A stretch of DNA of 42,234 nucleotides. Origin: Oscillospiraceae bacterium. Its GTDB lineage: Bacteria; Bacillota; Clostridia; Oscillospirales; Acutalibacteraceae. Position numbers and translations under genes: made by a program. The stretch is from the NCBI GenBank assembly GCA_902786285.1, contig CADABX010000022.1, positions 1-42,234 on the forward strand, written 5' to 3'. A model generated the notes under the pieces. That model did no database searches, was not told the origin of the DNA, and saw nothing but the letters and a program-made list of their open reading frames with translations. Numbering within the stretch: position 1 is the first letter of the stretch; each line of letters starts with the position of its first letter. Shown one piece after another: positions 2 to 33,605 of the stretch.

Positions 2-2665
2 ATGAAGCCCAAGAGCGCGTCGAATCTGAAGGTCCGCTGGTCCTCGTCCGACAAGAGCGTGGCCACCGTGGACGGCAAGGGCAAGATCACCGGCGTCAAG
101 GCCGGCACCGCAACGATCAAGGTCGTGTCCGGCGACAAGAATGTTTCCACCACCTGCAAGGTCACCGTCATTCAGCGTGTGACCAGCATCAAATTCAAAG
201 ACAGCACACCCACCGTCAAGGTCGGCAAAACAAAAAAGCTTGCCGTTACCATGCTGCCCGAGACCGCCAGTGAAACCGCCTTCACCTGGACTTCGTCCAA
301 CAAGAAGATTGCAAAGGTCAGCAAGGCCGGCAAGGTCCGCGGCGTAAAGCCCGGCACCGTGACCATCACCGTGTCCAACGCGGACGGCTCCGCAAAGGCA
401 AAGTGCCGTCTGAGCGTGCTCCAGGGCGTGACGGGCATGCAGTTTGACAAAGCGGCGCTGACCGTTTCCACGGGTAAAAAAGCAACCCTCAAAGCCAACA
501 TTGAACCGTCCAACGCCGCCGATAAAAAGGTGATCTGGACCTCCTCCAACAACGACGTTGCAACCGTCGACGAAAAGGGCGTCATCACCGCAAAGGCGGT
601 CGGCTACGCTGTGATTACCGGTAAAACCAACGACGGCGGCTTCACCGACAGCTGCCGCGTCAATGTGGTCTACGGTGTGAAGAAGGTCCGGCTCAACAAG
701 ACGAGCGCCACGCTCGATGTGGACGAAAAACTGACGCTGAAGCCGACCATCTCGCCGGCCAACGCCAGCAACAAGGACGTGAAATGGACGTCGTCCAACA
801 AGCATGTGGCCAAGGTCTCGAAAAAGGGCGTTGTCAAGGCCGTTGCCAAAGGCTCGGCTGTGATCACGGTTTCCACCGTGGACGGCGGCTATACTGCCAC
901 CTGCAAGATCGACGTGGTCAGAAAAGCGACCGGCATCAAGCTGAGCCGCAGCAAGGCGACGGTTGAAAAGGGCGATACCTATCAGCTTTCCGCATCCGTG
1001 CAGCCGACCGACGCCACGATCCGCACCGTAAAATGGAAATCCTCCAACAAAAAGGTTGCCACGGTCAGTGCGAACGGACTTGTTACCGCGGTTGCGGCAG
1101 GCAAGGCAAAGATCACGGTGACGTCGACCGACGGCGGCTTTAAGAAAGCCTGTGTCGTCACGGTTCATGTGACGCCGAGATCCATTACACTCAATAAAAA
1201 CACCGCTTCGATCAATACCGGAAAATCACTCCGGCTCAAAGCGTCGGTCGCGCCGGCGGACGCCTATGACGCCGTTGTCTGGACATCGTCCAACAAGGCG
1301 GTTGCCGCTGTAAGCACAAGCGGCGTTGTCACCGCACGCAAGGGCGGCAAAACCGTAATCACCGCAACAACAGACAACGGTCTGACTGCAAGATGTACCG
1401 TGACCGTCAACCAGCTGGTGGAAACGGTCAGACTGAACAAAACAGCTTTGACGCTGTCGCCCAACGAGCGCGCCACGCTCAAAGCCACCGTCAGCCCGAC
1501 CAACGCCGTTTATCAGACGCTGGAATGGACGAGCGACAACACCAAAGCGGCCAAGGTCACACAAAAAGGCGTTGTCACCGCTGTTGCGCCGGGCTCGGCA
1601 ACCATCACAGCCAAGAACCTTGTCGGCGATGTGAGCGCTGTTTGCAAGGTGACCGTCCGCAAGGCCGTTACAAGCGTAACGCTGAACGAAAAAGCGCTCT
1701 CGCTCGTGTATCCGAAGACTGCGGCGCTGACCGCAACGGTTGCGCCGGACGACGCCAGCAACCGCAGCGTTACCTGGACGTCCTCCGATCCCGCTGTGGC
1801 AACCGTGTCCGACAACGGTCTGGTAACGCCGGTCGGCTCGGGCGAAACGACCATTACCGTGAAAACGGTTGACGGCGGGCTGAAAGCGGCCTGCACCGTC
1901 AGTGTGAATGTTCCCGTTACGGATATCAGTGCACCGGCGGAAAAGACGTTCTATGTCGGCCAGAAGACGTCGCTCGGCATCACAACCGTGCCGGCCGGCG
2001 CCACCAACCGCGCCATCTCCTATACCATCGCCGATCCGTCGATCGCCACGATCAGCAGCAGCGGCGAGATCGAGCCGCTGAAAAACGGCATGACCTCCGT
2101 TACAGCCAAGACGGCGGAGGGTGGCTTCTCCAAAACGATGCGCATCATCGTGGAGACCAAAGTGACCGGTATCACGCTCGACAAAAAAGAGCTGAAGCTC
2201 GGTGTTGGTGATACCCAGCGGCTGATCGCTTCTGTTGCGCCGACAACGGCAACCAACAAAAAGGTCTTATGGACGAGCAGCAACGAAGCGGTTGCAACGG
2301 TCAACGAGACCGGCGTCGTCACCGCAAAATCGCTCGGCGCGGCGATCATCACCGCCACCACCGAAGACGGCAAAAAGGCTGCGACCTGTGCCGTTACCGT
2401 GCTGGTGCCGCTGCAGTCCATTTCGCTCAGCAGCAGCACGCTGCGTCTGACAAAGGGCGAAACGGCAACACTGACCGCAACGGTCGAGCCGGAAAACGCG
2501 ACCTATCCGACCATCGTCTGGACCAGCGACAACTCCAAGATCGCGTCGGTCAGCTCCAATGGTCAGATTACCGCGAACGACCGCGGCAACTGTGTGATCA
2601 CCGCCGCCAGTGAGGACGGCACGATCGTTGCCACCTGCGTCGTCGCTGTCAGCGAAGTCGTATAA
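2..2665 (+). CDS. Bacterial Ig-like (BIG2) repeat surface protein, 5'-truncated by the window
   Basis: The reading frame is open at the left edge, so the true start and any signal peptide lie outside the window. The visible 887 residues are about eleven tandem BIG2-type Ig-like domains of roughly 80 residues. Each carries the pattern W-T-S-S-N..VATV..G.VTA...G.A.IT followed by a C.VTV strand; the ninth copy is degenerate (SYTIADPS in place of WTSSN). BIG2 domains are extracellular stalk or adhesion modules in bacterial surface proteins. No LPxTG, SLH or transmembrane anchor is present at the C-terminus, which ends just after the last Ig strand, so any anchoring element must be upstream. A strong terminator follows within 12 bases. 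The family is clear; ligand and biological role are unknown. Confidence 0.9.
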   Translation: MKPKSASNLKVRWSSSDKSVATVDGKGKITGVKAGTATIKVVSGDKNVSTTCKVTVIQRVTSIKFKDSTPTVKVGKTKKLAVTMLPETASETAFTWTSSNKKIAKVSKAGKVRGVKPGTVTITVSNADGSAKAKCRLSVLQGVTGMQFDKAALTVSTGKKATLKANIEPSNAADKKVIWTSSNNDVATVDEKGVITAKAVGYAVITGKTNDGGFTDSCRVNVVYGVKKVRLNKTSATLDVDEKLTLKPTISPANASNKDVKWTSSNKHVAKVSKKGVVKAVAKGSAVITVSTVDGGYTATCKIDVVRKATGIKLSRSKATVEKGDTYQLSASVQPTDATIRTVKWKSSNKKVATVSANGLVTAVAAGKAKITVTSTDGGFKKACVVTVHVTPRSITLNKNTASINTGKSLRLKASVAPADAYDAVVWTSSNKAVAAVSTSGVVTARKGGKTVITATTDNGLTARCTVTVNQLVETVRLNKTALTLSPNERATLKATVSPTNAVYQTLEWTSDNTKAAKVTQKGVVTAVAPGSATITAKNLVGDVSAVCKVTVRKAVTSVTLNEKALSLVYPKTAALTATVAPDDASNRSVTWTSSDPAVATVSDNGLVTPVGSGETTITVKTVDGGLKAACTVSVNVPVTDISAPAEKTFYVGQKTSLGITTVPAGATNRAISYTIADPSIATISSSGEIEPLKNGMTSVTAKTAEGGFSKTMRIIVETKVTGITLDKKELKLGVGDTQRLIASVAPTTATNKKVLWTSSNEAVATVNETGVVTAKSLGAAIITATTEDGKKAATCAVTVLVPLQSISLSSSTLRLTKGETATLTATVEPENATYPTIVWTSDNSKIASVSSNGQITANDRGNCVITAASEDGTIVATCVVAVSEVV

Positions 2666-7291: not shown

Positions 7292-9772
7292 TTACCGCTT
7301 AAAGATTGCCAGAATGCTGTGGAAGAACTTGATCAGCCAGCCGAACAGACCGGTATGTACCTGTCCGCAATATTTGCAGGCGTTCGGGTTCGGCTGCGGG
7401 TTGGACGGCTGCGACGGCGTCACGTCTTTGATGTGTGTACCGCAGCGGGTGCAGTTGCCGTTGCTGTCGGCGTTCGCGTGGCCGAGCGCGGCGATGGTGC
7501 TGCCCTTCGTGATTGTCTGCTTGCAAGTCGTGCAGTACTGGTCGCCGGTATAGCCTGCCGCGGTGCAGCTCGCTTCCGCCTTGTTGACCGTGGTCAGCGT
7601 GTGGGCTTTCTTTGCAATCGCCGTACCCTTGGTGATCGTCTGCTTGCACACGCTGCAGACCTGATCGCCGGTGTAGCCTTCCGCAGTGCAGGTGGCGGCT
7701 TTGGCGTTCTGTGTGGTGGTCTTGTGCGCGGCAAGCGGCTGCTCGGCGTGACCGCTGATGTACTTCTTGCAGTCGTTGCAATAGACGCCTGCGGTGTAGC
7801 CCTTCACGGTGCAGGTGGAGGCGGTGGCGGCGGTGTTCGTTGTGTTCACATGGTTCGATGCATTCACAGCGATCGTTTCTGTCTTTGTTGCGTTGCAAAC
7901 CGTACAGGTATAGGTTTTCACACCTGTTGCGACGCAGGTTGCCGCTTTGGTTATAGAGCCGGCGTTCCAGGTATGGTTCGCCTTTTCAACATGGCTGCTG
8001 TCCCGCGAACACACACGCTGATGCTGGGTATCATTCAGTTTTGTCCAGGCGCCGTAGCTGTGGCCAAGTTTGGCAATGGCCTCGGTGTAGCTTGCGCCAC
8101 AGGAGCAGGTGAAAGTTTTTGTGCCGGTTGCAGTGCAGGTAGCCGCACTTGTTACAACACCTTTCCAACTATGCGTATGATCGCCAATTGTAAACGTGAC
8201 CGAATTGCTCGGTGTGCTGTACCAATGGTATTTGGTGTTTACAGCTGTAAGATAAGCGGTATATTTGCCCTTCGGCAACCGAACACTGCATGTCGTGTCT
8301 GTCAGGTCAAGGACATGCTTATATTCTGTCCCGTTTTCGCCAAGCTCCGAGCCCTGCCAAATACGAAGATTGTATATTCTCTGATCATATTTCGCGCTTT
8401 TCACCGGAGATGCGGTCCATTTGAACACAGTGTCCGTGAGCGTACTACCCAAAGAACTGATGCTCAGCTTCGACGCATCCGGCGCATCGGGTTTGGCATA
8501 ATCTGTTTTCTTGACAACTGAAAAACCCTGTGCTGCAGTTCCAGTTCCAACCGTTCCGTTATCATCCCACAGATACACATTGGTGCCGGGTTCGGGTGAA
8601 GCGCCTTTTAGCGACATCAATTTGTTGCCGGAAGAGGAAACAAGACAGTAAACGCCGTTCTTTTTCGTAACAACCCAGTGTTGGCACGCACCGTCATAAT
8701 CCTTCTGGCAAACGATATTATCGCCGTTACTTGTACCGTCATTTTCTGCAGTAAGCAGTGTGCCATTATAAGCATTATACACCAGATAACTGCCGTCGTT
8801 GTTTCGCATAAAATGCCATATCAAACGAGGGTCGTTTGCTTCGTTGCTTGACGCCTGAACATTATTGTCATAGTTACCTATGATCCTGCTCGTGCTGGTA
8901 TTGACGATCTCCGCGAAGAAATCCTCACCAAGATTGACTGCCTGCGGATTAACGACAAACTTGCAGCTGGTTGAGGAATCCAACCCGACCTCCTGAAGAA
9001 TAATCGTATATCCGCCATCTTCGGGTGGGCTATAAGTATATGAAGTTGCTTTGCCGACATTCTTCGAAAGAACCTGGTGTGCATCTATCCACTCTCCGCT
9101 CCGCCGTTCTCCGGCTTTCCATATAACAACATTATAAGACGTTGCGCCTGTACAAGCATCCCATGTAATTTTTACTTTGGAACCGAAGGGATAAAGGGTC
9201 TCGTCTGTTCTAACATCTGATGACGTTGGTGTGATGGAAGGATAATTCGGTCTTAAATAAAGACGATAAGATCCAACAGAACTAACCTTTCTTTCACCAT
9301 TACAGCACCCCGGAGAAGAACCGTTATTTCCTCCTGCACAGTATGGAACACCATTCTCTACTTTGGTTATAATTTCAACATGACTCCAAGTAAAGAAAAC
9401 CAAATCGCCAGCTTTGGGCGAAGTAACTTCCACAGCGCCTCTTGCTCTCATTTTGCTTTCAAAATCAGCAACTGTTCCCCCGTGTGCAACGATGGAATCA
9501 TCTCCTCCTGCGTTTTCTATGCAGTCTGCAACATATTCATCGCACCATGCACCATAATCAACACCACTGTAACCAAAATCAGTGCATGTTCTTCCTTTTT
9601 GTGACTTCGCAATCATAGCAACGTCATATGCCATGTCGCCTGTCAAAGTATACTTACTCTTATCAAAGCTGTCTTTTCTGCAACAAGTTGCATTTGCCTC
9701 CATCACCGGCACCACCGCGACCAGCATCAGCAGGCAAAGCACCATGCTCAGTATTCGTTTTGTTTGTTTCAT
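7292..9772 (-). CDS. Secreted CHAP/NlpC-type hydrolase with lectin-like and Cys-repeat modules (copy 1)
   Basis: 826 residues. A signal peptide (KQTKR, hydrophobic core, ANA cleavage near residue 28) precedes a cysteine-peptidase domain of CHAP/NlpC type with Cys77 (GAWCDEYVADC), His131 (WSHVEII) and Asn149/150, suggesting a peptidoglycan amidase or endopeptidase. Then follow a fibronectin-like stretch (about 180-280), a ricin-like trefoil region starting LGEDFFAEI (about 285-420), another beta domain (about 430-530), six CxxC or CxC Cys-repeat units of pattern ATC..G...YTC..C...., a Pro/Asn-rich linker, and a C-terminal tail with CKYCG, H and the hydrophobic helix GWLIKFFHSILAIFKR. The gene starts with AAAGGAGG 7 bases before the ATG. 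The 5' two-thirds is visibly more AT-rich than the 3' third. It is divergent from a small XRE gene. The enzyme target and the role of the tail are inferred. Confidence 0.8.
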   Translation of the reverse strand: MKQTKRILSMVLCLLMLVAVVPVMEANATCCRKDSFDKSKYTLTGDMAYDVAMIAKSQKGRTCTDFGYSGVDYGAWCDEYVADCIENAGGDDSIVAHGGTVADFESKMRARGAVEVTSPKAGDLVFFTWSHVEIITKVENGVPYCAGGNNGSSPGCCNGERKVSSVGSYRLYLRPNYPSITPTSSDVRTDETLYPFGSKVKITWDACTGATSYNVVIWKAGERRSGEWIDAHQVLSKNVGKATSYTYSPPEDGGYTIILQEVGLDSSTSCKFVVNPQAVNLGEDFFAEIVNTSTSRIIGNYDNNVQASSNEANDPRLIWHFMRNNDGSYLVYNAYNGTLLTAENDGTSNGDNIVCQKDYDGACQHWVVTKKNGVYCLVSSSGNKLMSLKGASPEPGTNVYLWDDNGTVGTGTAAQGFSVVKKTDYAKPDAPDASKLSISSLGSTLTDTVFKWTASPVKSAKYDQRIYNLRIWQGSELGENGTEYKHVLDLTDTTCSVRLPKGKYTAYLTAVNTKYHWYSTPSNSVTFTIGDHTHSWKGVVTSAATCTATGTKTFTCSCGASYTEAIAKLGHSYGAWTKLNDTQHQRVCSRDSSHVEKANHTWNAGSITKAATCVATGVKTYTCTVCNATKTETIAVNASNHVNTTNTAATASTCTVKGYTAGVYCNDCKKYISGHAEQPLAAHKTTTQNAKAATCTAEGYTGDQVCSVCKQTITKGTAIAKKAHTLTTVNKAEASCTAAGYTGDQYCTTCKQTITKGSTIAALGHANADSNGNCTRCGTHIKDVTPSQPSNPQPNPNACKYCGQVHTGLFGWLIKFFHSILAIFKR

Positions 9773-9796
9773 AAAACATCCTCCTTTGATTATATG

Positions 9797-9863
9797 TTCA
9801 ATTTTTTGAGCATAATCGTATTATACTCAATTTTTTGAACATAATCAATAGTTTAAATATGAT
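9797..9863. promoter_or_regulatory. Divergent promoters and direct-repeat operator of the CHAP-1/XRE pair
   Basis: Minus-strand promoter for the CHAP gene: -35 TTGATT (9843-9848), 17 bp, -10 TATAAT (9820-9825). Plus-strand promoter for the XRE gene: TTGAAC (9835-9840), 17 bp, TATGAT (9858-9863). A 20-bp repeat, TCAATTTTTTGARCATAATC, occurs at 9798-9817 and 9827-9846. The second copy covers both -35 elements, so one repressor could shut both genes. Each copy is itself a near-palindrome around TCAATTTTTTGA. Confidence 0.7.
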
Positions 9864-9885
9864 AATCTATTAAAGGTGATAGAAA

Positions 9886-10086
9886 ATGATTAGCTATCGG
9901 CCTTTCTATGAAACCTTGTTTAAGAAGAACGTGACAGTCTACCACCTGATTTATCATGAAGGCTTTTCCGCAAACACGTTTTACCGGATGAAGCAGGGAA
10001 AGGACATCAGCACAAAAACATTGGACGCACTATGTTTTGTGTTGGATTGTGAAGTGGAAGATATCATCAAGCATGTCAAAGAATAA
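9886..10086 (+). CDS. Small XRE-family (Cro/C1-type) transcriptional regulator
   Basis: A 66-residue protein that is essentially a single helix-turn-helix domain (YRPFYETLFKKNVTVYHLIYHEGFSANTF recognition region, then KTLDALCFVLDCEVEDII). This is the compact Cro/C1 class with no effector domain. A ribosome site AAAGGTGA precedes the ATG. It is transcribed divergently from the secreted CHAP gene across a 113-base gap holding a duplicated operator-like sequence, so autoregulation plus repression of the CHAP gene is the simplest reading. A terminator follows directly. Confidence 0.85.
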   Translation: MISYRPFYETLFKKNVTVYHLIYHEGFSANTFYRMKQGKDISTKTLDALCFVLDCEVEDIIKHVKE

Positions 10087-10120
10087 ACCGCTCTCTCCTC
10101 TCGGAAGAAAGCGGTTTTTT
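10087..10120 (+). terminator. Terminator of the small XRE gene
   Basis: ACCGCT pairs with AGCGGT around an inner TCTCC/GGAAGA helix, followed by TTTTTT. Confidence 0.8.
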
Positions 10121-17412: not shown

Positions 17413-19164
17413 TTATTTCTTGAACATCGGACGCGCCACATAGGTGGTATGCAGCAGTTCGTGTGCCTTGTGACTGTTCGGTTCGCCGAGGAACTCCGCG
17501 TAGACCTGCTTGATGTCTTCGCTTTCGTGGCTCTTGCGGTGCGGGCGGTTCTTGTCGTTTTCATACAGCGCTGCGGCACGCAATGCCTTGAGGTCGGTGA
17601 AGTTGCGCACGGAGGCCGGCTGGGTCGGCTGACCGCCGCCGTTGATGCAGCCGCCGGGGCAGCACATGATTTCGATGAAGGTGTAGTCGGCGGTGCCGGC
17701 ACGAACCTTGTCCATCAGGATCTTCGCGTTCTTGGTGCCGCTGGCAACGGCGACCTTGACGGTCAGACCGGCGAGATCATAGGACGCTTCCTTGACGCCT
17801 GCCATACCGCGGACGTCGGTGAACTCCACGTTTTCAAGCTCTTTGCCGGTGATGACTTCCGCGGCGGTACGCAGCGCGGCTTCCATCACGCCGCCGGTCG
17901 CGCCGAAGATGACGGCGGCGCCGGTGCCCTGGCCGAGCGGCGCGTCCGGATTTTCATCCGGCAGCTCGGTGAAGCGGATGCCGGCCGTTTTGATCATGCG
18001 GCCGAGTTCGCGGGTGGTCAGCACATAGTCCACATCGGCGTAGCCGCTGGCGTTCTGGTCGTCGCGGCCGATCTCGAACTTCTTGGCGGTACACGGCATG
18101 ACGGAAACGGAGACGATGTCCTTCGGGTCGATGCCGTTCTTTTCGGCGATATAGGTCTTGATGATCGCGCCCTGCATCTGCTGCGGAGATTTGCAGGAGG
18201 ACAGATGCGCGAGCTGATCGGGATAGTAGTGTTCGCAATACTTGATCCAGCCCGGCGAGCAGGAGGTGATCATCGGCAGCACGCCGCCGTTCTTCACACG
18301 GTCAACCAGCTCGTTGGCTTCTTCCATAATGGTCAGGTCGGCGCCGAAGTTGGTGTCATACACCTTGTCGAAGCCGAGACGGCGCAGCGCCGCAAACAGC
18401 TTGCCGGTCACGTCGGTGCCGGGCGCCATGTCGAAGCATTCGCCCAAGGTGGCACGGATGGACGGCGCAGCCTGTACGACCACATATTTAGACGGGTCGG
18501 CAATGGCGGCAAAGACGTCGCGGGTGCAGTCCTTTTCATACAGCGCGCCGGTCGGGCAGGCGACGATGCACTGGCCGCAGGAGACGCAGCTTGTATTGCC
18601 GAGCGGCAGCTCGTAGGCGCAGCCGATGTTGGTGTCGATACCGCGGGCATTTGCGCCGATGACGCTGATATCCTGGTTCTTACAGGCGGCGACGCAGCGG
18701 CGGCACAGGATGCACTTGTTGTTGTCGCGCACCATGTGGGCGGCGGAGGTGTCAAGCTCGTAGTGCGGTTTGAAGCCGTCGAACACGCCCTCATCCTCAA
18801 TGCCGTATTCATGGCAGAGCTTTTGCAGCTCGCAGGAACCGGAGCGGATGCAGGAAAGGCACTTGCGTTCGTGGGTGGAAAGGATCAGTTCGAGCGTCTT
18901 TTTGCGGGACGCGCGGATCTTTTCGGTGTTGAGGAAGATCTCGGTGCCTTCGCGTTCGATCGGATAGACACAGGCAGCAACCAGACTGCGGGCGCCCTTG
19001 ACTTCCGCCACGCAGAAACGGCACGCACCGATTTCGTTCATGTCCTTCAGGAAGCACAGCGTCGGCACCTCGATGCCGATCGAGCGGGCAGCTTCCAGGA
19101 TGGTTGTACCGTAAGGTACCGTGCAGGGTATATTGTTGATTATGATGTTAAGCATGTTATCCAT
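17413..19164 (-). CDS. hydA: [FeFe] hydrogenase catalytic subunit HydA of the electron-bifurcating complex
   Basis: 583 residues. An N-terminal plant-type 2Fe-2S domain (ACRFC and upstream cysteines) is followed by the His-Cys3 cluster (H-x3-C-x2-C-x5-C), two 4Fe-4S motifs (CILCRRCVAAC, CVSCGQCIVACP) and the H-cluster domain. The H-cluster has TSCSPGW (299-305), MPCTAKKFE (from 355) and EIMCCPGGCINGGGQP (497-512), all catalytic cysteines present. A small-subunit-like tail follows. In the trimeric HydABC class it evolves H2 from reduced ferredoxin plus NADH by electron confurcation, or the reverse. The ATG at 19164 was chosen over a GTG at 19173 because GGGAGG is 8 bases before it. It is the last gene of the operon. 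Confidence 0.95.
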   Translation of the reverse strand: MDNMLNIIINNIPCTVPYGTTILEAARSIGIEVPTLCFLKDMNEIGACRFCVAEVKGARSLVAACVYPIEREGTEIFLNTEKIRASRKKTLELILSTHERKCLSCIRSGSCELQKLCHEYGIEDEGVFDGFKPHYELDTSAAHMVRDNNKCILCRRCVAACKNQDISVIGANARGIDTNIGCAYELPLGNTSCVSCGQCIVACPTGALYEKDCTRDVFAAIADPSKYVVVQAAPSIRATLGECFDMAPGTDVTGKLFAALRRLGFDKVYDTNFGADLTIMEEANELVDRVKNGGVLPMITSCSPGWIKYCEHYYPDQLAHLSSCKSPQQMQGAIIKTYIAEKNGIDPKDIVSVSVMPCTAKKFEIGRDDQNASGYADVDYVLTTRELGRMIKTAGIRFTELPDENPDAPLGQGTGAAVIFGATGGVMEAALRTAAEVITGKELENVEFTDVRGMAGVKEASYDLAGLTVKVAVASGTKNAKILMDKVRAGTADYTFIEIMCCPGGCINGGGQPTQPASVRNFTDLKALRAAALYENDKNRPHRKSHESEDIKQVYAEFLGEPNSHKAHELLHTTYVARPMFKK

Positions 19165-19179
19165 TGTCTGCACCTCCCC

Positions 19180-20973
19180 TTATTCCTTGATGATTGCGCC
19201 GAATTTGCAGGTCTCCATGCAGGCGCCGCACTTGATGCACTTCGAGGTGTCGATCGTATGCGGATTCTTGACCGTACCGGAGATCGCGCCCACCGGGCAC
19301 TTTCTTGCGCAGGCGGTGCAGCCGCGGCACTTGTCGGCGATGATCTTGTATTGCAGCAAATCTTTGCAGACGCCGGCCGGGCACTTCTTGTCGACCACGT
19401 GGGCGACATATTCGTCGCGGAAGAACTTGAGGGTCGCAAGCACCGGGTTGGGCGCTGTCTGGCCGAGACCGCAAAGCGAGTTCTCTTTGATGTAATAGCA
19501 CAGCTCTTCGAGCTTGTCCAGATCCTCGAGCGTGCCGTTGCCGGACGTGATCTTGTCGAGCATTTCAAGCAGTCTGCGGGTACCCACACGGCACGGTGTG
19601 CACTTGCCGCAGGATTCGTCGACGGTGAAGTTGAGGAAGAACTTTGCGATGTCGACCATGCAGTTGTCCTCGTCCATAACGATCAGACCGCCGGAACCCA
19701 TCATGCAGCCGATGGCTGTCAGGTTGTCGTAGTCGATCGGGGTGTCGATCAGGCTCATCGGGATACAGCCGCCGGACGGGCCGCCGGTCTGGGCAGCCTT
19801 GAACTTTTTGCCGTTCGGGATGCCGCCGCCGATCTCTTCAATGATTTCTCTGAGCGTGGTGCCCATCGGGATTTCCACAAGGCCGGTGTTCTTGATCTTG
19901 CCGCCGAGCGCGAAGACCTTGGTGCCCTTGCTCTTTTCGGTACCCATGGAGGCGAAGTATTCCGCGCCTTCGCGGATGATGGTCGGGATATTGGCAAAGG
20001 TTTCCACGTTGTTTTCCGTGGTCGGTTTGCCGAACAGACCCTTGACAGCCGGATACGGCGGACGCGGTCTGGGTTCGCCGCGGTTGCCTTCGATGGAGGT
20101 CATGAGTGCGGTCTCTTCGCCGCAGACGAACGCGCCTGCGCCGAGCTTGATGTGCAGATCGAAATCGAAGCCGGAGCCGAAGATGTCTTTGCCCAAAAGG
20201 CCCATTTCCTTCGCCTGCGCGATGGCGATCTCCAAGCGCTTGACAGCGATCGGATATTCCGCACGGACGTAGATGTAGCCTTCGGTTGCGCCGGTCGCAT
20301 AGCCGCAGATGGTCATCGCTTCGATGATGCAATGCGGGTCGCCTTCAAGCACGGAGCGATCCATGAACGCGCCCGGGTCGCCTTCGTCGGCGTTGCAGAC
20401 GACGTATTTCTGGTCGGCCTTGTTCGCCGCGGTAAAGCTCCATTTGAGCCCCGTCGGGAAACCGCCGCCGCCGCGGCCGCGAAGACCGGAATCCTTGACG
20501 ATCTGGATGACCTCTTCGGGCTTGAGCTCGGTCAGGCACTTGGCCAGCGCCTGATAGCCGTCGTAGGCGATGTATTCGTTGATGTCCTCGGGGTTGATGA
20601 CGCCGCAGTTGCGCAGCGCCACGCGCTTTTGCTTTTTATAGAAGTCGGTCTCCTTGAGCGGCTTGACCTCTTCCTGGGCGCCGGCCTTGGTCTCATCATA
20701 GAGCAGACGCTGCACGATGCGGCCCTTGAGCAGATGCTCTTCGACGATCTCGGGCACATCTTCGACCTTCACTTCGCTGTAGAAGCAGCCTTCGGGATAG
20801 ACCACGACGACCGGGCCGAGCGCGCAAAGACCGAAGCAACCGGTGCGGATGACCTTGACTTCGTCTTCGAGGCCTTTTTCCTTGATCTGGGCTTCAAACT
20901 GTTCGATGATCTTTGGGGAGTTTGAGGAGGTACAGCCGGTACCGCCGCAAACAAGCACATGGGATCGATACAT
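19180..20973 (-). CDS. hydB: Bifurcating hydrogenase NADH-binding subunit HydB (NuoF-like)
   Basis: 597 residues. The order is: an N-terminal thioredoxin-like 2Fe-2S domain (VCGGTGCTSSNS, TGCFGLCALGPVVVVYPEG); the NuoF core with the glycine-rich nucleotide site LRGRGGGGFPTGLKW and FMN site GAGAFVCGEETALMTSIEG; an SLBB segment; the 4Fe-4S loop ESCGKCTPCRVG; and a C-terminal double ferredoxin (CRGCTACARKCP, CIKCGACMETC). HydB carries the FMN where electrons are split or joined between NAD(H) and ferredoxin. AAGGAGG precedes the ATG. It lies between the 2Fe-2S protein and hydA with gaps of 12 and 15 bases. Confidence 0.96.
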   Translation of the reverse strand: MYRSHVLVCGGTGCTSSNSPKIIEQFEAQIKEKGLEDEVKVIRTGCFGLCALGPVVVVYPEGCFYSEVKVEDVPEIVEEHLLKGRIVQRLLYDETKAGAQEEVKPLKETDFYKKQKRVALRNCGVINPEDINEYIAYDGYQALAKCLTELKPEEVIQIVKDSGLRGRGGGGFPTGLKWSFTAANKADQKYVVCNADEGDPGAFMDRSVLEGDPHCIIEAMTICGYATGATEGYIYVRAEYPIAVKRLEIAIAQAKEMGLLGKDIFGSGFDFDLHIKLGAGAFVCGEETALMTSIEGNRGEPRPRPPYPAVKGLFGKPTTENNVETFANIPTIIREGAEYFASMGTEKSKGTKVFALGGKIKNTGLVEIPMGTTLREIIEEIGGGIPNGKKFKAAQTGGPSGGCIPMSLIDTPIDYDNLTAIGCMMGSGGLIVMDEDNCMVDIAKFFLNFTVDESCGKCTPCRVGTRRLLEMLDKITSGNGTLEDLDKLEELCYYIKENSLCGLGQTAPNPVLATLKFFRDEYVAHVVDKKCPAGVCKDLLQYKIIADKCRGCTACARKCPVGAISGTVKNPHTIDTSKCIKCGACMETCKFGAIIKE

Positions 20974-28992: not shown

Positions 28993-29028
28993 TTGACAAA
29001 CGGGATAATATAATTATAATATAATTAT
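28993..29028 (+). promoter_or_regulatory. brn promoter with perfect palindromic operator
   Basis: TTGACA (28993-28998), 16 bp, TATAAT (29015-29020). A 19-base perfect palindrome, ATAATTATA-A-TATAATTAT (29010-29028), covers the -10 and the first bases of the brnT remnant. Ribbon-helix-helix antitoxins such as BrnA typically bind palindromes in their own promoter. Confidence 0.7.
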
Positions 29029-29095
29029 GGAAGCATTATATTTTACTTGGGATGAAAACAAAAACGCGATTAACAAAGCTAAACATTCGCTTTGA
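29027..29095 (+). pseudogene. brnT: Truncated BrnT-type toxin remnant
   Basis: The ATG at 29027 opens a 22-codon frame reading M-E-A-L-Y-F-T-W-D-E-N-K-N-A-I-N-K-A-K-H-S-L and then TGA. This is the characteristic BrnT N-terminus (F-x-W-D-E-N-K-N...N..KH). BrnT toxins are ribonucleases of about 90 residues, so roughly 70 residues, including the catalytic part, are missing. The antitoxin gene begins 14 bases after this stop. The predicted transcript would start at or next to the ATG. Too short for a toxin; best read as the scar of a deletion. Confidence 0.75.
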
Positions 29096-29109
29096 GAAGG
29101 TGAAGCACA

Positions 29110-29319
29110 ATGAGAGACGAATATGATTTTTCCAACGGCATCAAGAATCCGTATGCAAAACGGCTGAAAAAACAAATCACGATCAATATCGACAGCAGTA
29201 CCATCGACTACTTCAAAGAGCAGGCCGCGCAGTCCGGGATTCCCTATCAGACACTGATCAATCTGTATCTGACCGACTGCGCCGTGCATCAAAGAAAAAT
29301 GAACGTTTCGTGGAATTGA
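29110..29319 (+). CDS. brnA: BrnA-family antitoxin (orphan)
   Basis: 69 residues: MRDEYDFSNGIKNPYAKRLKKQITINID followed by a ribbon-helix-helix core (STIDYFKEQAAQSGIPYQTLINLYLTDCA). The opening and the YFK...GIPYQTLIN segment are typical of BrnA/COG3514 antitoxins, which neutralise BrnT by contact and repress the operon. GAAGGTG precedes the ATG. The partner toxin is reduced to an N-terminal stub, but the antitoxin frame is intact and the promoter palindrome is perfect, suggesting retention as a DNA-binding regulator. Confidence 0.88.
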   Translation: MRDEYDFSNGIKNPYAKRLKKQITINIDSSTIDYFKEQAAQSGIPYQTLINLYLTDCAVHQRKMNVSWN

Positions 29320-29337
29320 CACACAGCAAAACACAGC

Positions 29338-29374
29338 ACCCGCTTTCGACGTTTTGTCGAAGGCGGGTGGCTTT
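29338..29374. terminator. Bidirectional terminator between brnA and the second XRE gene
   Basis: ACCCGCTTTCGAC, GTTTT, GTCGAAGGCGGGT (13 bp, one wobble), followed by GGCTTTT. It overlaps the stop region of the convergent XRE gene. Confidence 0.85.
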
Positions 29375-29616
29375 TATATATTTTCGAGTTCTCTTGAACG
29401 GAAAACCTCTGTATTAAAGAAATCATACAGGCTGATTCCAAAACCGTCGCAAAGCAGCTTGATGGTCACAACACCGGGATTTTTGCTTTTTCCATATAAG
29501 ATACTCTTGATGGTGGATGCCGAAACACCGGATTTCATGGCAAGCGCATAGATCGACATTTGCTTTTGTTCCAGTAAAAACAAAATCCGGTTCTTCGTAT
29601 CAGCATAGGTATCCAT
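29374..29616 (-). CDS. XRE-family regulator divergent from the second CHAP gene
   Basis: 80 residues, a single Cro/C1 helix-turn-helix (RILFLLEQKQMSIYALAMKSGVSASTIKSILYGKSKNPGVVTIKLLCDGFGISLYDFF). The ATG at 29616 follows AGGAGG by 9 bases; the longer frame from 29643 would use that site as coding sequence. It is divergent from the secreted CHAP gene across 109 bases holding an ATTAGGGCGATA direct repeat. It is a different XRE subtype from the one at 9886 but occupies the same position relative to a paralogous secreted gene. Confidence 0.85.
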   Translation of the reverse strand: MDTYADTKNRILFLLEQKQMSIYALAMKSGVSASTIKSILYGKSKNPGVVTIKLLCDGFGISLYDFFNTEVFRSRELENI

Positions 29617-29663
29617 CACATATAACCTCCTGTATTGTTTCAAGAAGATTATAAGTTTTTTTC

Positions 29664-29703
29664 TTGACAGATTAGGGCGATATATGATACTATTAGGGCG
29701 ATA
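29664..29703 (+). promoter_or_regulatory. Promoter and direct-repeat operator of the second CHAP gene
   Basis: -35 TTGACA (29664-29669) with a probable -10 GATACT (29686-29691, 16-bp spacer). ATTAGGGCGATA occurs at 29671-29682 and 29692-29703, 21 bp apart (two helical turns), flanking the -10. A minus-strand TATAAT at 29648-29653 may serve the XRE gene. Confidence 0.7.
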
Positions 29704-29725
29704 AATAAACTAAGGAGGCTTTTTT

Positions 29726-31951
29726 ATGAAACAAACAAAACGGATATTGAGCATTGTATTGTGCTTGCTGATGCTGATCACGGTTGTGCCATTTGGGTGT
29801 TTTAATGCATCTGCTACACAGGACAGATCTTCAAATTTTTATAAGAATTATACTGTAGACAATGATCCGGGACAATTCATGGTTAATATTGCTTTGGCAC
29901 AATTGGGTCGCAGCACATCAAGCATGGGGTATTCTGAGGCTTGGTGCGCAAATTTTGTATCTGATTGTGCCAGACTTGCAGAGCAGTCAGATGCTATACC
30001 TGCACATAGTTATGTCCCAACGCTTTGGAGTAACATTTTGAGAGCTGGTGGCAGAGAAGTGTACAACCGAAAAGCAGGTGACATCATTTTTTACGATTGT
30101 CCAAAATGTGATACAGACGGAGACGGGGTTTCTTTGCAGCATGTTGGTATCGTAATAGATGGAACCTATTCTGTAGAGGGCAACTTATCTTCCAGTGTAA
30201 AAAAAGTATCTAACTTCACTGATAGCAGTGGTCATACCACTAGCTCTGGTGTTATTAAAAGAAGATATTTAAGGCCAAGTTACCAAAACAGCACACCATC
30301 TGCGCCAACCTACACCGAACCACCAACAGCGCCGGTTGTATCTGTTGATAAAAAAATCGGACTGGTCAATGAAGATATTACGATCTCCTTTTCTGCGGAA
30401 CGAGTATCCTACTACTGGATCGGCATTTATTGTGATGGGGATTTATATACAAATGTGAATGTTTATGATAATGAATATATCATAAGTTATCCTTGGGTAG
30501 GGAAATATGATATAGTTGTTGAGGCTAAGAATAATTGTGGTTCAAAAACAGGGTATGCCAGCTTCAAATTGGGCCACGAGGGAGATTACATACCAAGTGA
30601 TTTTTCAGTTTCCACAGATAAGTCGATTGCTTATAGAAATGAACCAATTACATTTACGTTTTCTGCTGATGACGCAGACCGTTATTGGATTGGTATTTAT
30701 ACGTCTGGCAATTATTGTTATGTCAGTGATAATGTCTCTGGAAACACTTATTCGGTTTCGCTTCCTTGGGTTGGTAATTATCATGCCACAATTGTTGCCA
30801 TAAATGATTGCTCGAGTACCACAAAATATCTTAATTTGTCTGTTGCTGAGAATGATTTGGGTGAAGACTTTTATGCGATAATAGAAAACAAAACTAGCGG
30901 GAAATGGCTCACCGATCGGAATTATAATGTCCAAGGAGAATCACCTGCCTGCGCTCGTAATCAAATATGGCATTTCATTCGGCATGAAGATGGTAGCTAT
31001 AGCATTCTATGCAACGACACTTATGCAATGGATATAGCAAATATTAGTACCACTGCAGGTGCCAATCTACAAATGGTTTATTATGCTGCAAATGCAGCAC
31101 AACGATTTTATGTTTTCCATAAAGATGGAGGATATTTTTTCAGATCTTCCTATGCCGATTTATGGATTGATATGGATCAATCTGACAACAATGCCGCCAT
31201 GTGGAATAGTGCCTTAAACTCAGCTCCACAAACATTTGATATTATCAAGGTTAACAAAGACTATACCCACACATGGAACAGCGGCACGATAACGAAAGCT
31301 GCCACATGCTCTGCAACCGGTACCAAAACCTACACCTGTACGGTCTGCAACGCAACAAAGACAGAAACGATCGCGGTCAGCCCTAACAACCACGTCAACA
31401 CAACGAATACCGCCGCAACCGCGTCCACCTGCACGGCGAAGGGCTACACCGCGGGCGTCTATTGCAACGACTGCAAGAAGTATATCAGCGGTCACGCCGA
31501 ACAGCCGCTTGCCGCGCACCAGCCCACCACGCAAAACGCCAAAGCCGCCACCTGCACCGCAGAAGGCTACACCGGCGATCAGGTCTGCACGGTTTGCAAG
31601 CAGACGATCACCAAGGGCACAGCCATTGCAAAGAAGGCTCACACGCTGACCACGATCAACCAAAAATCCGCCACCTGCACTGCGGCAGGCTACACCGGCG
31701 ACCAATACTGCACAACCTGCAATCAGACGATCAGCAGAGGCTCAGCCACCAACGCCCTCGGTCATGCGAACGCCGACAGCAACGGCAACTGTACCCGCTG
31801 CGGTCAGCATATCAAGGACGTGCCGCCGTCGCAGCCGTCGAACCCGCAGCCGAATCCGAACGCCTGCAAATACTGCGGTCAGGTGCATACCGGTCCGTTC
31901 GGCTGGCTGATCAAGGTCTTCCACAGCATTCTGGCAATCTTCAAGCGATAA
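29726..31951 (+). CDS. Secreted CHAP-type hydrolase with beta domains and Cys-repeat module (copy 2)
   Basis: 741 residues, paralogue of the protein at 7292-9772. A near-identical signal peptide (MKQTKRILSIVLCLLML) precedes a CHAP domain with Cys74 (EAWCANFVSDC), His139 (LQHVGIVID) and Glu151/Asn153 (SVEGN), suggesting peptidoglycan cleavage. Two tandem Ig/PKD-like repeats follow (about 205-375, each with YYWIGIY or RYWIGIY and PWVG[KN]Y), then a trefoil lectin-like region opening LGEDFYAII (about 379-510). The Cys-repeat module and C-terminal CKYCG...GWLIKVFHSILAIFKR tail are nearly identical to copy 1. Codons 1 to about 510 are AT-rich, the rest GC-rich like the chromosome. AAGGAGG lies 8 bases before the ATG. 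The target and trafficking are inferred. Confidence 0.8.
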   Translation: MKQTKRILSIVLCLLMLITVVPFGCFNASATQDRSSNFYKNYTVDNDPGQFMVNIALAQLGRSTSSMGYSEAWCANFVSDCARLAEQSDAIPAHSYVPTLWSNILRAGGREVYNRKAGDIIFYDCPKCDTDGDGVSLQHVGIVIDGTYSVEGNLSSSVKKVSNFTDSSGHTTSSGVIKRRYLRPSYQNSTPSAPTYTEPPTAPVVSVDKKIGLVNEDITISFSAERVSYYWIGIYCDGDLYTNVNVYDNEYIISYPWVGKYDIVVEAKNNCGSKTGYASFKLGHEGDYIPSDFSVSTDKSIAYRNEPITFTFSADDADRYWIGIYTSGNYCYVSDNVSGNTYSVSLPWVGNYHATIVAINDCSSTTKYLNLSVAENDLGEDFYAIIENKTSGKWLTDRNYNVQGESPACARNQIWHFIRHEDGSYSILCNDTYAMDIANISTTAGANLQMVYYAANAAQRFYVFHKDGGYFFRSSYADLWIDMDQSDNNAAMWNSALNSAPQTFDIIKVNKDYTHTWNSGTITKAATCSATGTKTYTCTVCNATKTETIAVSPNNHVNTTNTAATASTCTAKGYTAGVYCNDCKKYISGHAEQPLAAHQPTTQNAKAATCTAEGYTGDQVCTVCKQTITKGTAIAKKAHTLTTINQKSATCTAAGYTGDQYCTTCNQTISRGSATNALGHANADSNGNCTRCGQHIKDVPPSQPSNPQPNPNACKYCGQVHTGPFGWLIKVFHSILAIFKR

Positions 31952-31969
31952 ACGAACCACATATCAGTT

Positions 31970-32000
31970 CACCCGCCCGTTCAAAAGGCGGGTGTTTTTT
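31970..32000 (+). terminator. Terminator of the second CHAP gene
   Basis: CACCCGCC, CGTTCAAAA, GGCGGGTG, TTTTTT. Confidence 0.9.
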
Positions 32001-32082
32001 GCCTCTGCCGGTCTGTGCGGCGCGCCGGCCGCAGCCATCTTGCTTTCTTGCTTCTTGCCGTCTTGCAGTCTATCACATCCTT

Positions 32083-32126
32083 GCAACAAATTGTTGCTTG
32101 ATTTTTTCATAATTGTATGGTTTGAT
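32083..32126 (+). promoter_or_regulatory. Promoter and palindrome before the XRE-DUF2157 gene
   Basis: TTGATT (32098-32103), 17 bp, TTTGAT (32121-32126). The perfect inverted repeat GCAACAA-A-TTGTTGC (32083-32097) abuts the -35 and is a likely operator. Confidence 0.55.
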
Positions 32127-32150
32127 AGAGACGAAAGGAGGCATTCCTTT

Positions 32151-33605
32151 ATGACCAAGGTTTCCAAAAATATCAAACGAGCGCGGACGCGGCAAAGTCT
32201 GACGCAGGACGCGCTGGCCGAACAGCTCCATGTGACGCGGCAGACCGTGTCGAGCTGGGAGACCGGACGCACGCAGCCCGACCTCGATATGCTGCTGCAG
32301 CTTTGCACGGCGCTGAACGTGCCGGCGGAGGAGCTGCTTTACGGCGAAAAGAGAAATACGTCGCTCGACGCACCGGCAGGTTACCGCGGCACGGTCAAAA
32401 TCGTCCTCACGTCGCTCGCCTGTCTGTTCATCGCCGCCGGCGCGCTGCTGGTACTGCTCAACGGGTGGAAGGATCTGCCGCGTTCGGTGCGCTATGTCTG
32501 TGCATTTTTCCCGCTGCTCGGCGGCCAGGGCGCGGCGCTCTATGTCCTGCTGAAGCGAAGGGACAGCGCTGCCCACGCCGAAGGCGGCAGTGTGCTTTGG
32601 GCGGTGGGTCTGCTTGCCACAACCGCACTGCTGTATACGCTGCAGCACTACGCGCCCGATATCCCGGTTGTGGCGCTCGTGCTCTCGCTGCTGATCCTGC
32701 CGATGTTTCTGCTGTTTCGCTCGCTGTCGGCGCTGACGTTTTACATCGCCGGCATCACCGTGTTTGCGAGTACCGCCACGGACGACTGGCTGCCGCTTGC
32801 GTCGCTGACTGAAACGCAGACGAAGCTCGCCGTCTTCGTGGTCTATACCGTGCTGGTTGCCGCAGGTCTGTTTGCGGCAAAACGAAGCCTTGCCGCGATG
32901 GACGAACAGCGGCGGCATGTGGGCGTTTGGTTCTGCTTTGCCGCGGTGATCGACTGGTGCATCTGCTGCGCCGCCGTGCTGGACACAGGCGTGTTTTCCA
33001 TGCTGCTTTGCGTTGCGGTCACGCTCTATGCCCTCGACGGCATCGGCCAAAGCAAGGCGATGGCCACGCGCTATCTTGCGCTGCCCGGGCTGCTGTTTTT
33101 GCTGCTGCTCGCGTCCGGCGGCGTGCTGTTCAGTTTGCCGTCCGACTGGAAGTTTTCGCCCGTGATGCTGCCCGGCTTTTTGCTGCTCGGCGTTTTGCCG
33201 CTCGGCGCGCTGATTGCCAACCGCCGGGTTCTGCTGCACGACAAGCTGCGGCTCGGCCAGATTGCGGCGGGCCTTGCCGGCCTTGCGTTTTACACTGTGA
33301 TGTATCTGACGGAAAACAACGCCGACGACAAACGTGCCGTTGTCTTTCAGGCGATCACGTTCGTGCTCGCGGTGCTGCTTGTGATCCAGGGCGCGATGGA
33401 AAATGCATTGTTTAAAATCAACCTCGGCTTTATCTCCGTCTGCGTGCTGGCGTCCTTCCTTGTTTGGCACGCGGAATTCGGGCTTTGGCTCAAGGGTCTG
33501 ATTCTGCTGAGCTTCGGCGTACTGCTGCTGCTCATCAACCGCCATGCGCTGTCGCGCAAACAAAAAGCGATCACGGAAAGGCAGGTGCCGCCCGATGAAG
33601 GCTAA
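32151..33605 (+). CDS. XRE helix-turn-helix fused to a DUF2157-type membrane domain
   Basis: 484 residues. Residues 1-66 form a Cro/C1 DNA-binding domain (LTQDALAEQLHVTRQTVSSWETGRTQPDLDML). From residue 80 to the end there are about fourteen hydrophobic segments, the layout of DUF2157 membrane proteins, with WKDLPRSVRY and LLKRRDSAAH marking the start of that domain. It is therefore a membrane-tethered transcription factor or sensor. The ATG at 32151 follows AAAGGAGG by 9 bases. It overlaps the downstream membrane-anchored gene by 11 bases. The signal sensed is unknown. Confidence 0.82.
   Translation: MTKVSKNIKRARTRQSLTQDALAEQLHVTRQTVSSWETGRTQPDLDMLLQLCTALNVPAEELLYGEKRNTSLDAPAGYRGTVKIVLTSLACLFIAAGALLVLLNGWKDLPRSVRYVCAFFPLLGGQGAALYVLLKRRDSAAHAEGGSVLWAVGLLATTALLYTLQHYAPDIPVVALVLSLLILPMFLLFRSLSALTFYIAGITVFASTATDDWLPLASLTETQTKLAVFVVYTVLVAAGLFAAKRSLAAMDEQRRHVGVWFCFAAVIDWCICCAAVLDTGVFSMLLCVAVTLYALDGIGQSKAMATRYLALPGLLFLLLLASGGVLFSLPSDWKFSPVMLPGFLLLGVLPLGALIANRRVLLHDKLRLGQIAAGLAGLAFYTVMYLTENNADDKRAVVFQAITFVLAVLLVIQGAMENALFKINLGFISVCVLASFLVWHAEFGLWLKGLILLSFGVLLLLINRHALSRKQKAITERQVPPDEG

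What the first reader, a model, noticed from the sequence alone, without database searches (positions are those of the whole stretch)
7292..10086. XRE-controlled secreted cell-wall hydrolase module, one of two in the window
A small Cro/C1 repressor is divergent from a large secreted protein with a CHAP-like catalytic domain, lectin-like region, Cys repeats and a distinctive tail. The same architecture is repeated at 29374-31951 with a different XRE subtype and operator. Two loci with paralogous exported hydrolases under dedicated one-domain repressors look like a modular system for surface remodelling, host-glycan contact or inter-bacterial antagonism. No immunity gene is visible next to either. 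Seen: gene layout, motifs, repeats. Inferred: function.
Basis: partly seen in the sequence, partly recalled or inferred. Interest (0 to 1): 0.75.

Follow-up and report, generated by a model that had tools for sequence, protein, structure and literature searches.

The report
Repressor-switched secreted cell-wall enzyme cassettes
A bacterium related to uncultured rumen Clostridia carries secreted enzyme genes that each sit head-to-head with their own small repressor gene and DNA switch and end in the same uncatalogued tail; related species keep such switches but can have a different protein behind them.

Summary
Window 7292-9772(-) and 29726-31951(+) encode signal peptide + CHAP-type cysteine hydrolase + ricin-B lectin + Cys repeats + a shared tail. 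Each is divergent from a single-domain XRE gene. A third copy (contig C30) has a third XRE class.

In all I found 16 distinct tail genes in six genomes with a divergent small XRE (84-132 bp between start codons), in nine XRE classes. In the five classes with two or more members the spacer is conserved across species, even where the protein behind it differs (class A: CHAP or DUF6273). In the window genome the class A and class C operators match only their own loci; class B was not searched. So the XREs look like dedicated local switches, and the coding parts like exchangeable modules.

XRE linkage is a subset trait: 11 of 86 tail genes, and two of the seven best CHAP-head matches lack it. The tail (CxxCGxxHxG, then an amphipathic helix with a second His) matched no Pfam or NCBIfam model. 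It occurs 12-36 times per genome in 10 of 34 congeneric genomes and 0-1 times in the other 24, like a sorting signal with unknown partner.

Repression, envelope anchoring and muralytic activity are inferred.

The parts
9886..10086 (+). XRE1, 66-aa single-domain HTH_26 repressor (class A)
   Evidence: Pfam HTH_26 47.4 bits; 97% identical in genome G009
9793..9813 (-). presumed operator copy ATGCTCAAAAAATTGAACATA
   Evidence: one of only two matches in the held 2.39-Mb genome at up to 3 mismatches
9822..9842 (-). presumed operator copy ATGTTCAAAAAATTGAGTATA, between -35 and -10 of the putative W1 promoter and over the -35 of the putative XRE1 promoter
9820..9848 (-). putative promoter of W1, TTGATT-17-TATAAT
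   Evidence: 3 sites found in the region versus 1.5 +/- 1.4 in shuffles, so weak alone; similar site in the other three class A spacers
9835..9863 (+). putative promoter of XRE1, TTGAAC-17-TATGAT
   Evidence: 9 of 12 matches; weak alone
7292..9772 (-). W1, 826-aa secreted CHAP / ricin-B / Cys-repeat / tail protein
9689..9772 (-). signal peptide of W1 (about residues 1-28, by eye)
   Evidence: sequence; the 5' ends of the three paralogues (79-108 bp pieces) are 76-84% identical DNA
9326..9556 (-). CHAP domain of W1; C77, H131, N149
   Evidence: Pfam 29.7 bits; invariant in the 8 sequences aligned
8567..8818 (-). RicinB_lectin_2 of W1
7463..7975 (-). Cys repeats of W1, unit about 41 aa (123-bp spacing); borders approximate
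   Evidence: no Pfam family listed there
7295..7384 (-). C-terminal tail NACKYCGQVHTGLFGWLIKFFHSILAIFKR
10085..10117 (-). terminator-like hairpin between the XRE1 and MFS genes
29374..29616 (-). XRE2, class B (open frame extends to TTG 29643)
   Evidence: Pfam HTH_26 35.5, HTH_3 32 bits
29664..29693 (+). putative promoter of W2, TTGACA-18-TACTAT
   Evidence: 3 sites in the region versus 0.9 +/- 0.9 in shuffles
29671..29706 (+). direct repeat ATTAGGGCGATAwAT x2, presumed XRE2 operator
   Evidence: not searched genome-wide, no second class B member found
29726..31951 (+). W2, 741-aa secreted CHAP-like / ricin-B / Cys-repeat / tail protein
29927..30166 (+). CHAP-like domain of W2 (below the Pfam cut-off)
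   Evidence: catalytic residues kept
30959..31195 (+). RicinB_lectin_2 of W2
31859..31948 (+). C-terminal tail of W2

Best explanation
Each locus is a self-contained repressor-switch cassette for an exported surface enzyme. A small XRE protein, made from its own divergent gene, binds a class-specific operator lying on the sigma-A promoter of the exported gene (and, at W1, on the -35 of its own promoter). It holds the exported gene low and limits its own synthesis, so the gene comes on as an individual switch when that XRE is lost or titrated. The product is exported by Sec. Its papain-like CHAP/amidase domain cuts peptide or amide bonds of peptidoglycan or similar envelope substrates, the ricin-B lectin supplies glycan binding, and the C-terminal C-C-H-H tail plus amphipathic helix keeps it at the cell envelope. 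Across species the switch and the tail are kept, while catalytic and lectin modules are exchanged. Shown by sequence: gene layout, class-specific spacers, promoter-like sites under the repeats, conserved catalytic residues, module exchange, tail distribution. Inferred: repression, the inducing signal, cell-wall hydrolysis, zinc binding, envelope anchoring.
For: Eleven of 86 tail genes (start recognised, at least 400 bp upstream) in nine genomes have a divergent small XRE with the HTH start 93-136 bp away; a second, overlapping set gave 9 of 55, five of them new; 16 distinct in all. 15 of 16 have TTGAC-16..20-TAnnnT towards the exported gene (W1 has TTGATT). Spacer alignment scores are 39-90 within XRE classes (10 pairs) against at most 24 between classes (110 pairs). 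Same class with different cargo: A CHAP versus DUF6273; G CHAP versus a protein with no Pfam head, C39-like by eye; E L163 versus L168; I L243 versus the small L268. In this genome the class A operator matches only its own locus, and so does class C. W1 versus its syntenic homologue in G009 (MFS neighbour 96%, XRE 97%): CHAP part 139 of 151 and C-terminus 179 of 186 identical, but the middle is replaced; the W1 middle is 75% identical over 344 aa to L139, which has another XRE class and an Amidase_6 head. Catalytic C/H/N invariant in the 8 sequences aligned.
Against: I had no expression or binding data; the named relatives are records of uncultured or metagenome-assembled bacteria. Two of the seven best CHAP-head matches (G041:C26, G018:C10) have no divergent XRE found, and 75 of 86 tail genes have none. 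Promoter-like sites alone are not clearly beyond shuffles. Exact inverted repeats with arms of 6 or more were found in 12 of 16 spacers, not in W1, W2, L141 and L246, and no shuffle control was run for them. The class C operator pattern had 5 chance matches in its reversed control. W2 is below the Pfam CHAP cut-off. The model of W1 30-421 is poor (mean pLDDT 55.5) and its PDB matches are weak (best calpain, E 6e-4 but TM 0.14). The tail helix is TM-like by hydropathy in only 24 of 113, and zinc binding was not tested.
Confidence: 0.6

Rival explanations
1. The proteins are secreted antagonistic lysins (bacteriocin-like) against neighbouring bacteria, kept silent by XRE until competition or stress; the lectin directs them to target cell walls.
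For: Papain-like catalytic heads, lectin, exchange of head and middle modules as in weapons; dedicated repressor-like control; a Barstar gene, a family known for inhibiting RNase toxins (recalled), lies 0.46 kb from XRE3 at the third copy.
Against: No recognisable immunity gene beside the two window copies, and a Barstar would not be expected to protect against a CHAP hydrolase; the tail is shared with LRR, GH25, M6 and DUF6273 proteins, so it marks a general class of exported proteins; the same XRE class also stands before non-hydrolases.
Confidence: 0.2
2. The XRE genes are leftovers of phage, ICE or other mobile-element control that happen to sit beside secreted genes, with no regulatory role for them.
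For: AT-rich cassettes (spacers and XRE genes 22-43% GC versus 55.7% for the window); W2 lies in about 3.2 kb missing from the same place in G012; a BrnA-like gene beside it.
Against: Nine XRE classes in the same geometry, with spacers conserved by class on the exported gene's side; no match of W1 in 50,697 phage records, and in 72,556 plasmid records one match, to the ricin part only.
Confidence: 0.07
3. The pair is a toxin-antitoxin or addiction unit in which XRE is the antitoxin.
For: Small XRE paired with a hydrolase; XRE2 has weak PADLOC matches.
Against: The partner has a signal peptide and would act outside, where a cytoplasmic XRE cannot bind it (sequence, established knowledge); no PADLOC match for W1 or W2; tail proteins with CHAP or amidase heads exist without XRE.
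Confidence: 0.03
4. The mosaic pattern and cassette copies are assembly or binning artefacts of draft genomes.
For: The genomes are drafts in many contigs; conserved ends and repeats can misjoin.
Against: W1 and W2 sit inside a 42-kb contig between ordinary genes; the W1 locus is syntenic in another genome (G009); the frames are open and the pattern recurs in six genomes.
Confidence: 0.05

Closest known systems
Secreted CHAP / Amidase_6 papain-like hydrolases (PF05257, PF12671)
   Same: Catalytic C/H/N, signal peptide, added binding domain
   Different: Cys repeats and the CxxCGxxH tail; head and lectin exchanged behind a conserved switch; substrate unknown
Phage CI/Cro-type divergent autorepressor switches (recalled, not tested)
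   Same: Small HTH protein, divergent promoter-like sites, presumed operator touching both at W1
   Different: Beside an exported protein, single operator locus per repressor for the two classes searched; no phage match
LPXTG/sortase and PEP-CTERM/exosortase C-terminal sorting signals (PMC1569441, PMC11980579; passages seen)
   Same: N-terminal signal peptide, tail at the extreme C-terminus with motif, helix and basic end; many copies per genome or few to none
   Different: Motif CxxCGxxHxG with a second His 12-13 residues on; helix short and amphipathic; no LPXTG-like motif; exosortase absent; sortase does not track
MYXO-CTERM/myxosortase (PMC11980579; passages seen)
   Same: Dozens of tagged proteins per genome, Cys-containing signature motif
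   Different: Two Cys and two His, no clear TM helix, Clostridia instead of Myxococcota

Membership tests
CHAP (PF05257) | score over the curated cut-off of 26 bits | tested here: met
   W1 29.7 and third copy 36.8 bits when the head is scanned alone; W2 23.9, not met
CHAP (PF05257) | catalytic Cys, His and polar third residue | tested here: met
   C77, H131, N149 invariant in the 8 sequences aligned
CHAP (PF05257) | peptidoglycan amidase or endopeptidase activity | not testable with these tools
   needs assay
Ricin-type beta-trefoil lectin (PF14200) | score over cut-off of 25.6 bits | tested here: met
   W1 50.3, W2 44.3 bits; third copy has none, but a Listeria-Bacteroides repeat
XRE / Cro-C1 HTH (PF13443) | score over cut-off of 22 bits | tested here: met
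   XRE1 47.4, XRE2 35.5 bits
XRE / Cro-C1 HTH (PF13443) | binds its operator and represses | not testable with these tools
   only class-conserved spacers shown
LPXTG / sortase substrates | LPXTG-like motif before a C-terminal helix | tested here: not met
   0 of 16 XRE-linked proteins in the last 60 residues; sortase in 34 of 34 congeneric genomes whether or not they have tails
PEP-CTERM / exosortase | exosortase PF09721 in the genome | tested here: not met
   0 of 34 genomes
C-terminal sorting tags in general (CTERM type) | many copies per genome or few to none | tested here: met
   12-36 in 10, 1 in 4, 0 in 20 of 34 genomes
C-terminal sorting tags in general (CTERM type) | hydrophobic transmembrane helix after the motif | tested here: inconclusive
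   mean Kyte-Doolittle above 1.6 in 24 of 113; amphipathic (z above 1) in 109 of 113
C-terminal sorting tags in general (CTERM type) | match to a catalogued Pfam or NCBIfam model | tested here: not met
   3 tails scanned, 0 matches in either library
C-terminal sorting tags in general (CTERM type) | a dedicated processing enzyme | not tested
Toxin-antitoxin pairs | both partners act in the cytoplasm | tested here: not met
   partner has a signal peptide by eye; export itself not tested

The most novel reading that the evidence does not exclude
A clade of uncultured, apparently mostly rumen-type Clostridia uses a new class of C-terminal surface signal, a C-C-H-H (probably zinc-binding) knuckle followed by an amphipathic helix, on a dozen to three dozen exported proteins per genome, with an unidentified partner. 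A subset of these proteins is wired as an expandable repertoire of orthogonal one-gene XRE switches, into which enzyme and lectin modules are plugged, so that each surface enzyme can be turned on independently.
Probability: 0.45. Interest if true: 0.8.

Novelty: new variant of a known kind. Interest (0 to 1): 0.6.

Why it matters
It turns a group of exported proteins of uncultured Clostridia into a testable system: nine repressor classes with predicted operators (two of them shown to have a single operator locus in this genome), and a C-terminal tail whose many-or-few distribution points to an undiscovered anchoring or sorting step. If the repressor-operator pairs are as specific as their sequences suggest they would be ready-made orthogonal regulators, and the tail gives a handle for finding the surface proteome of this group.

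Tried and rejected
Rejected: XRE tied to the CHAP domain (class A XRE also stands before DUF6273 proteins). Rejected: phage or plasmid origin of the proteins, as far as the two collections go. Rejected: sortase or exosortase as a partner that tracks the tail. Led nowhere: relatives of the CHAP head in viral contigs, 135 pattern stretches and none confirmed, but the patterns lay in the signal peptide; structure of W1 30-421 (mean pLDDT 55.5; best PDB match calpain, E 6e-4, TM 0.14; the protease-lectin protein Cwp84 at rank 4 with probability 0.12) and of the last 126 residues (mean pLDDT 72.2, helix over the tail, best E 1.8); Rfam on the window, nothing; PADLOC, only weak HTH matches. In seven literature searches the listings showed nothing on this tail or these cassettes; two papers were opened for passages only, and the library lacks most subscription journals.

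Rows dropped or doubtful: of 125 loci given to the tail script, 10 gave no tail by my first pattern. Looked at later, 8 of these hold the tail with a changed residue, 7 at the Gly and one at the second Cys; L165 and L044 showed no tail-like end. None of the ten gave an XRE hit. They are not in the 115, 93 and 86. Of the 115, L125 is a spurious match, L153 repeats the gene of L145, so the tail gene meant there was not analysed, and three have CxCG. Neither L125 nor L153 is among the 86.
Full report
What is in the window. W1 (7292-9772, minus) and W2 (29726-31951, plus) are large proteins with a signal peptide (by eye), a CHAP-type head, a ricin-B lectin region, Cys repeats and the same C-terminal tail; each starts next to a divergent single-domain XRE gene. 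CHAP is listed only when the head is scanned alone: 29.7 bits for W1, 23.9 for W2 (under the cut-off of 26) and 36.8 for the third copy. A third full copy lies on contig C30 of the same 2.39-Mb genome, again with a divergent small XRE. Among the three, pieces of 79-108 bp at the 5' end are 76-84% identical DNA and pieces of 597-688 bp at the 3' end 83-86%; the middle is diverged apart from one 394-bp piece at 67% between W2 and the third copy. The three XRE proteins belong to different classes. Spacers (22-31% GC), XRE genes (39-43%) and heads (41-42%) are AT-rich, while the C-terminal parts (57-59%) are like the window (55.7%).

The tail. Nineteen tails were found in this genome at E up to 10. 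A profile of 21 tails found 12-36 per genome in 10 of 34 congeneric genomes, one in 4 and none in 20; the 21 come from these genomes and match by construction. CxxCGxxH is present in 111 of 115 collected candidates (a looser form of this was used to pick them; one candidate is spurious and one counted twice). Features not used for picking are as constant: a second His 12 or 13 residues on in 111 of 111, and Gly two after the first His in 105 of 111. Eight further tails that the pattern missed differ at the Gly (7) or the second Cys (1). The 16 residues after the motif are amphipathic (z above 1 in 109 of 113) rather than clearly transmembrane (24 of 113), and 105 of 115 have K or R among the last four residues. 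Neither Pfam nor NCBIfam has a model that matches three tails given alone. A scan of one genome each for 84,980 species with one degenerate motif gave 108 stretches, 91 confirmed; the 80 listed are all records of Clostridia-type bacteria, described as uncultured or MAG, and those whose titles name a source name rumen or omasum of sheep, goat or roe deer. The tails sit on many protein types: in the first 300 residues of 75 XRE-free tail proteins, LRR_5 in 13, DUF6273 8, GH25 5, Peptidase_C1 5, Amidase_6 3, CHAP 3, M6 3. This resembles what was described for PEP-CTERM, many copies in some genomes and few or none in others, mostly with signal peptides (PMC1569441, passages). But exosortase is absent from 34 of 34 genomes, and sortase is in 34 of 34 irrespective of the tail.

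The XRE linkage in relatives. I fetched tail genes from nine genomes. Of 86 with a recognisable start and at least 400 bp upstream, 11 have a divergent small XRE whose HTH begins 93-136 bp upstream; three others have an XRE more than 650 bp away. The HTH model was built from four seeds, three of them the XREs of this genome, and iterated on the fetched frames. A second, overlapping set from named genomes gave 9 of 55, five of them new. They fall into nine XRE classes: 75-100% identity within classes (10 pairs), at most 59% and median 23% between them (110 pairs). Start codons of the pairs are 84-132 bp apart. Of the seven strongest CHAP-head matches in the genus (E below 1e-15), five have the XRE and two (G041:C26, G018:C10) do not.

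Operators. Fifteen of 16 spacers hold TTGAC, 16-20 bases, TAnnnT towards the exported gene; W1 has TTGATT-17-TATAAT. Repeats on or beside these sites differ by class: for example ATTGTAACATTTTGTTACAAT (class C), TTACAATACCATTGTAA (class E, both members), TAGTAAA with TTTACTA (class I, both members). Exact inverted repeats were found in 12 of 16 spacers, without a shuffle control; W2 has a direct repeat instead, and W1, L141 and L246 have none that is exact. Local alignment scores of spacers are 39-90 within the five classes with more than one member and at most 24 between classes; the spacers of a class share descent with its XRE, so this shows conservation of the switch as a unit, not binding. 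In the window genome the class A operator matches only its own two sites at up to three mismatches (0 in the reversed-pattern control). The class C operator likewise matches only its own locus, two exact sites and a reverse reading of one of them, while the reversed-pattern control had 5 chance matches. The class B repeat was not searched. At W1 one operator copy lies between -35 and -10 of the exported gene's site and covers the -35 of the XRE1 site. As predicted promoters alone these are weak (3 sites versus 1.5 +/- 1.4 in shuffles at W1; 3 versus 0.9 +/- 0.9 at W2).

Swapped cargo. The same XRE class stands before different proteins: class A before CHAP proteins (W1, L085) and DUF6273 proteins (L124, L181); class G before a CHAP protein (L141) and a protein without Pfam head that looks C39-like by eye (L246); class E before L163 (DUF1287-like, below cut-off) and L168 (CHAP); class I before L243 and the 186-aa L268. 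At one conserved locus the middle was exchanged: W1 and its homologue in G009 share the MFS neighbour (96%), the XRE (97%), the head (139 of 151) and the C-terminus (179 of 186), but of W1 181-280 only 8 residues align, and the lectin-containing part is 39% identical. The W1 middle is instead 75% identical over 344 residues to L139 of G019, which has XRE class D and an Amidase_6 head. W2 looks like an insertion relative to G012: there the sequence homologous to window 32083 begins 122 bp after the last codon of the DUF1846 gene, in the window 3,337 bp after it; in G011 it is 747 bp, with unrelated sequence between.

Cargo types. Among the 16, seven heads reach a Pfam cut-off for CHAP or Amidase_6 in at least one scan, mostly of the N-terminal part (W1, L031, L085, L141, L168, L139, L240), two match below it (W2 CHAP, L163 DUF1287), two are papain-like by eye only (L243, L246), and five are not (L124, L181, L162, L264, L268). 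Papain-like heads are thus commoner among XRE-linked tail proteins than among the other 75 (CHAP 3, Amidase_6 3, NLPC_P60 2, possibly overlapping; Peptidase_C1 5); I ran no test on this.

Surroundings. W1 lies between an MntP and an MFS gene, W2 between DUF1846 and XRE-DUF2157 genes with a BrnA-like gene. Beside the third copy, 0.46 kb from the end of XRE3, is a Barstar gene (66.9 bits, cut-off 23.4).

Reading. The best reading is a family of locally acting repressor switches for exported envelope enzymes, with exchangeable modules between a conserved switch and a conserved tail. The repression, the signal that releases it, the substrate, zinc binding by the tail and envelope attachment are inferences. 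Bacteriocin-like antagonism is the main rival; the lack of a recognisable immunity gene at the two window copies and the wide spread of the tail speak against it but do not exclude it.

Noticed in passing
window 29027-29319: A 22-codon open frame (looks by eye like the start of a BrnT toxin; no Pfam match) followed by a BrnA/CopG-antitoxin-like gene (29110-29319), both inside the stretch absent from G012.
   Followed up: partly
L031:2117-2419 (G000:C30): A Barstar-family gene (66.9 bits) lies 0.46 kb from XRE3 at the third copy; no barnase partner was looked for.
   Followed up: partly
window 31992-33605: A further XRE gene fused to a DUF2157 membrane part lies directly after W2; its homologue is present in G012 without the W2 cassette.
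   Followed up: partly
window 17449-20925: A 1158-aa open frame with no Pfam or NCBIfam match; long antisense frames overlap it.
   Followed up: no
G019 contig C19 (L139, L145, L147, L153, L163): Five tail genes lie on one 144-kb contig, and another small XRE (class F type) lies downstream of one of them; may be an array of cassettes.
   Followed up: no
G018:C5, G003:C20, G041:C60: Near the DUF1846 gene that precedes W2 here, other genomes carry a different tail gene (similar to the M6-type L087 in G018 and G003), so the site may be a hotspot for tail genes.
   Followed up: partly
G011:C229:65968-71401 (L087, L088, L091): Three neighbouring tail genes on one strand, their tails within 5.5 kb.
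   Followed up: no
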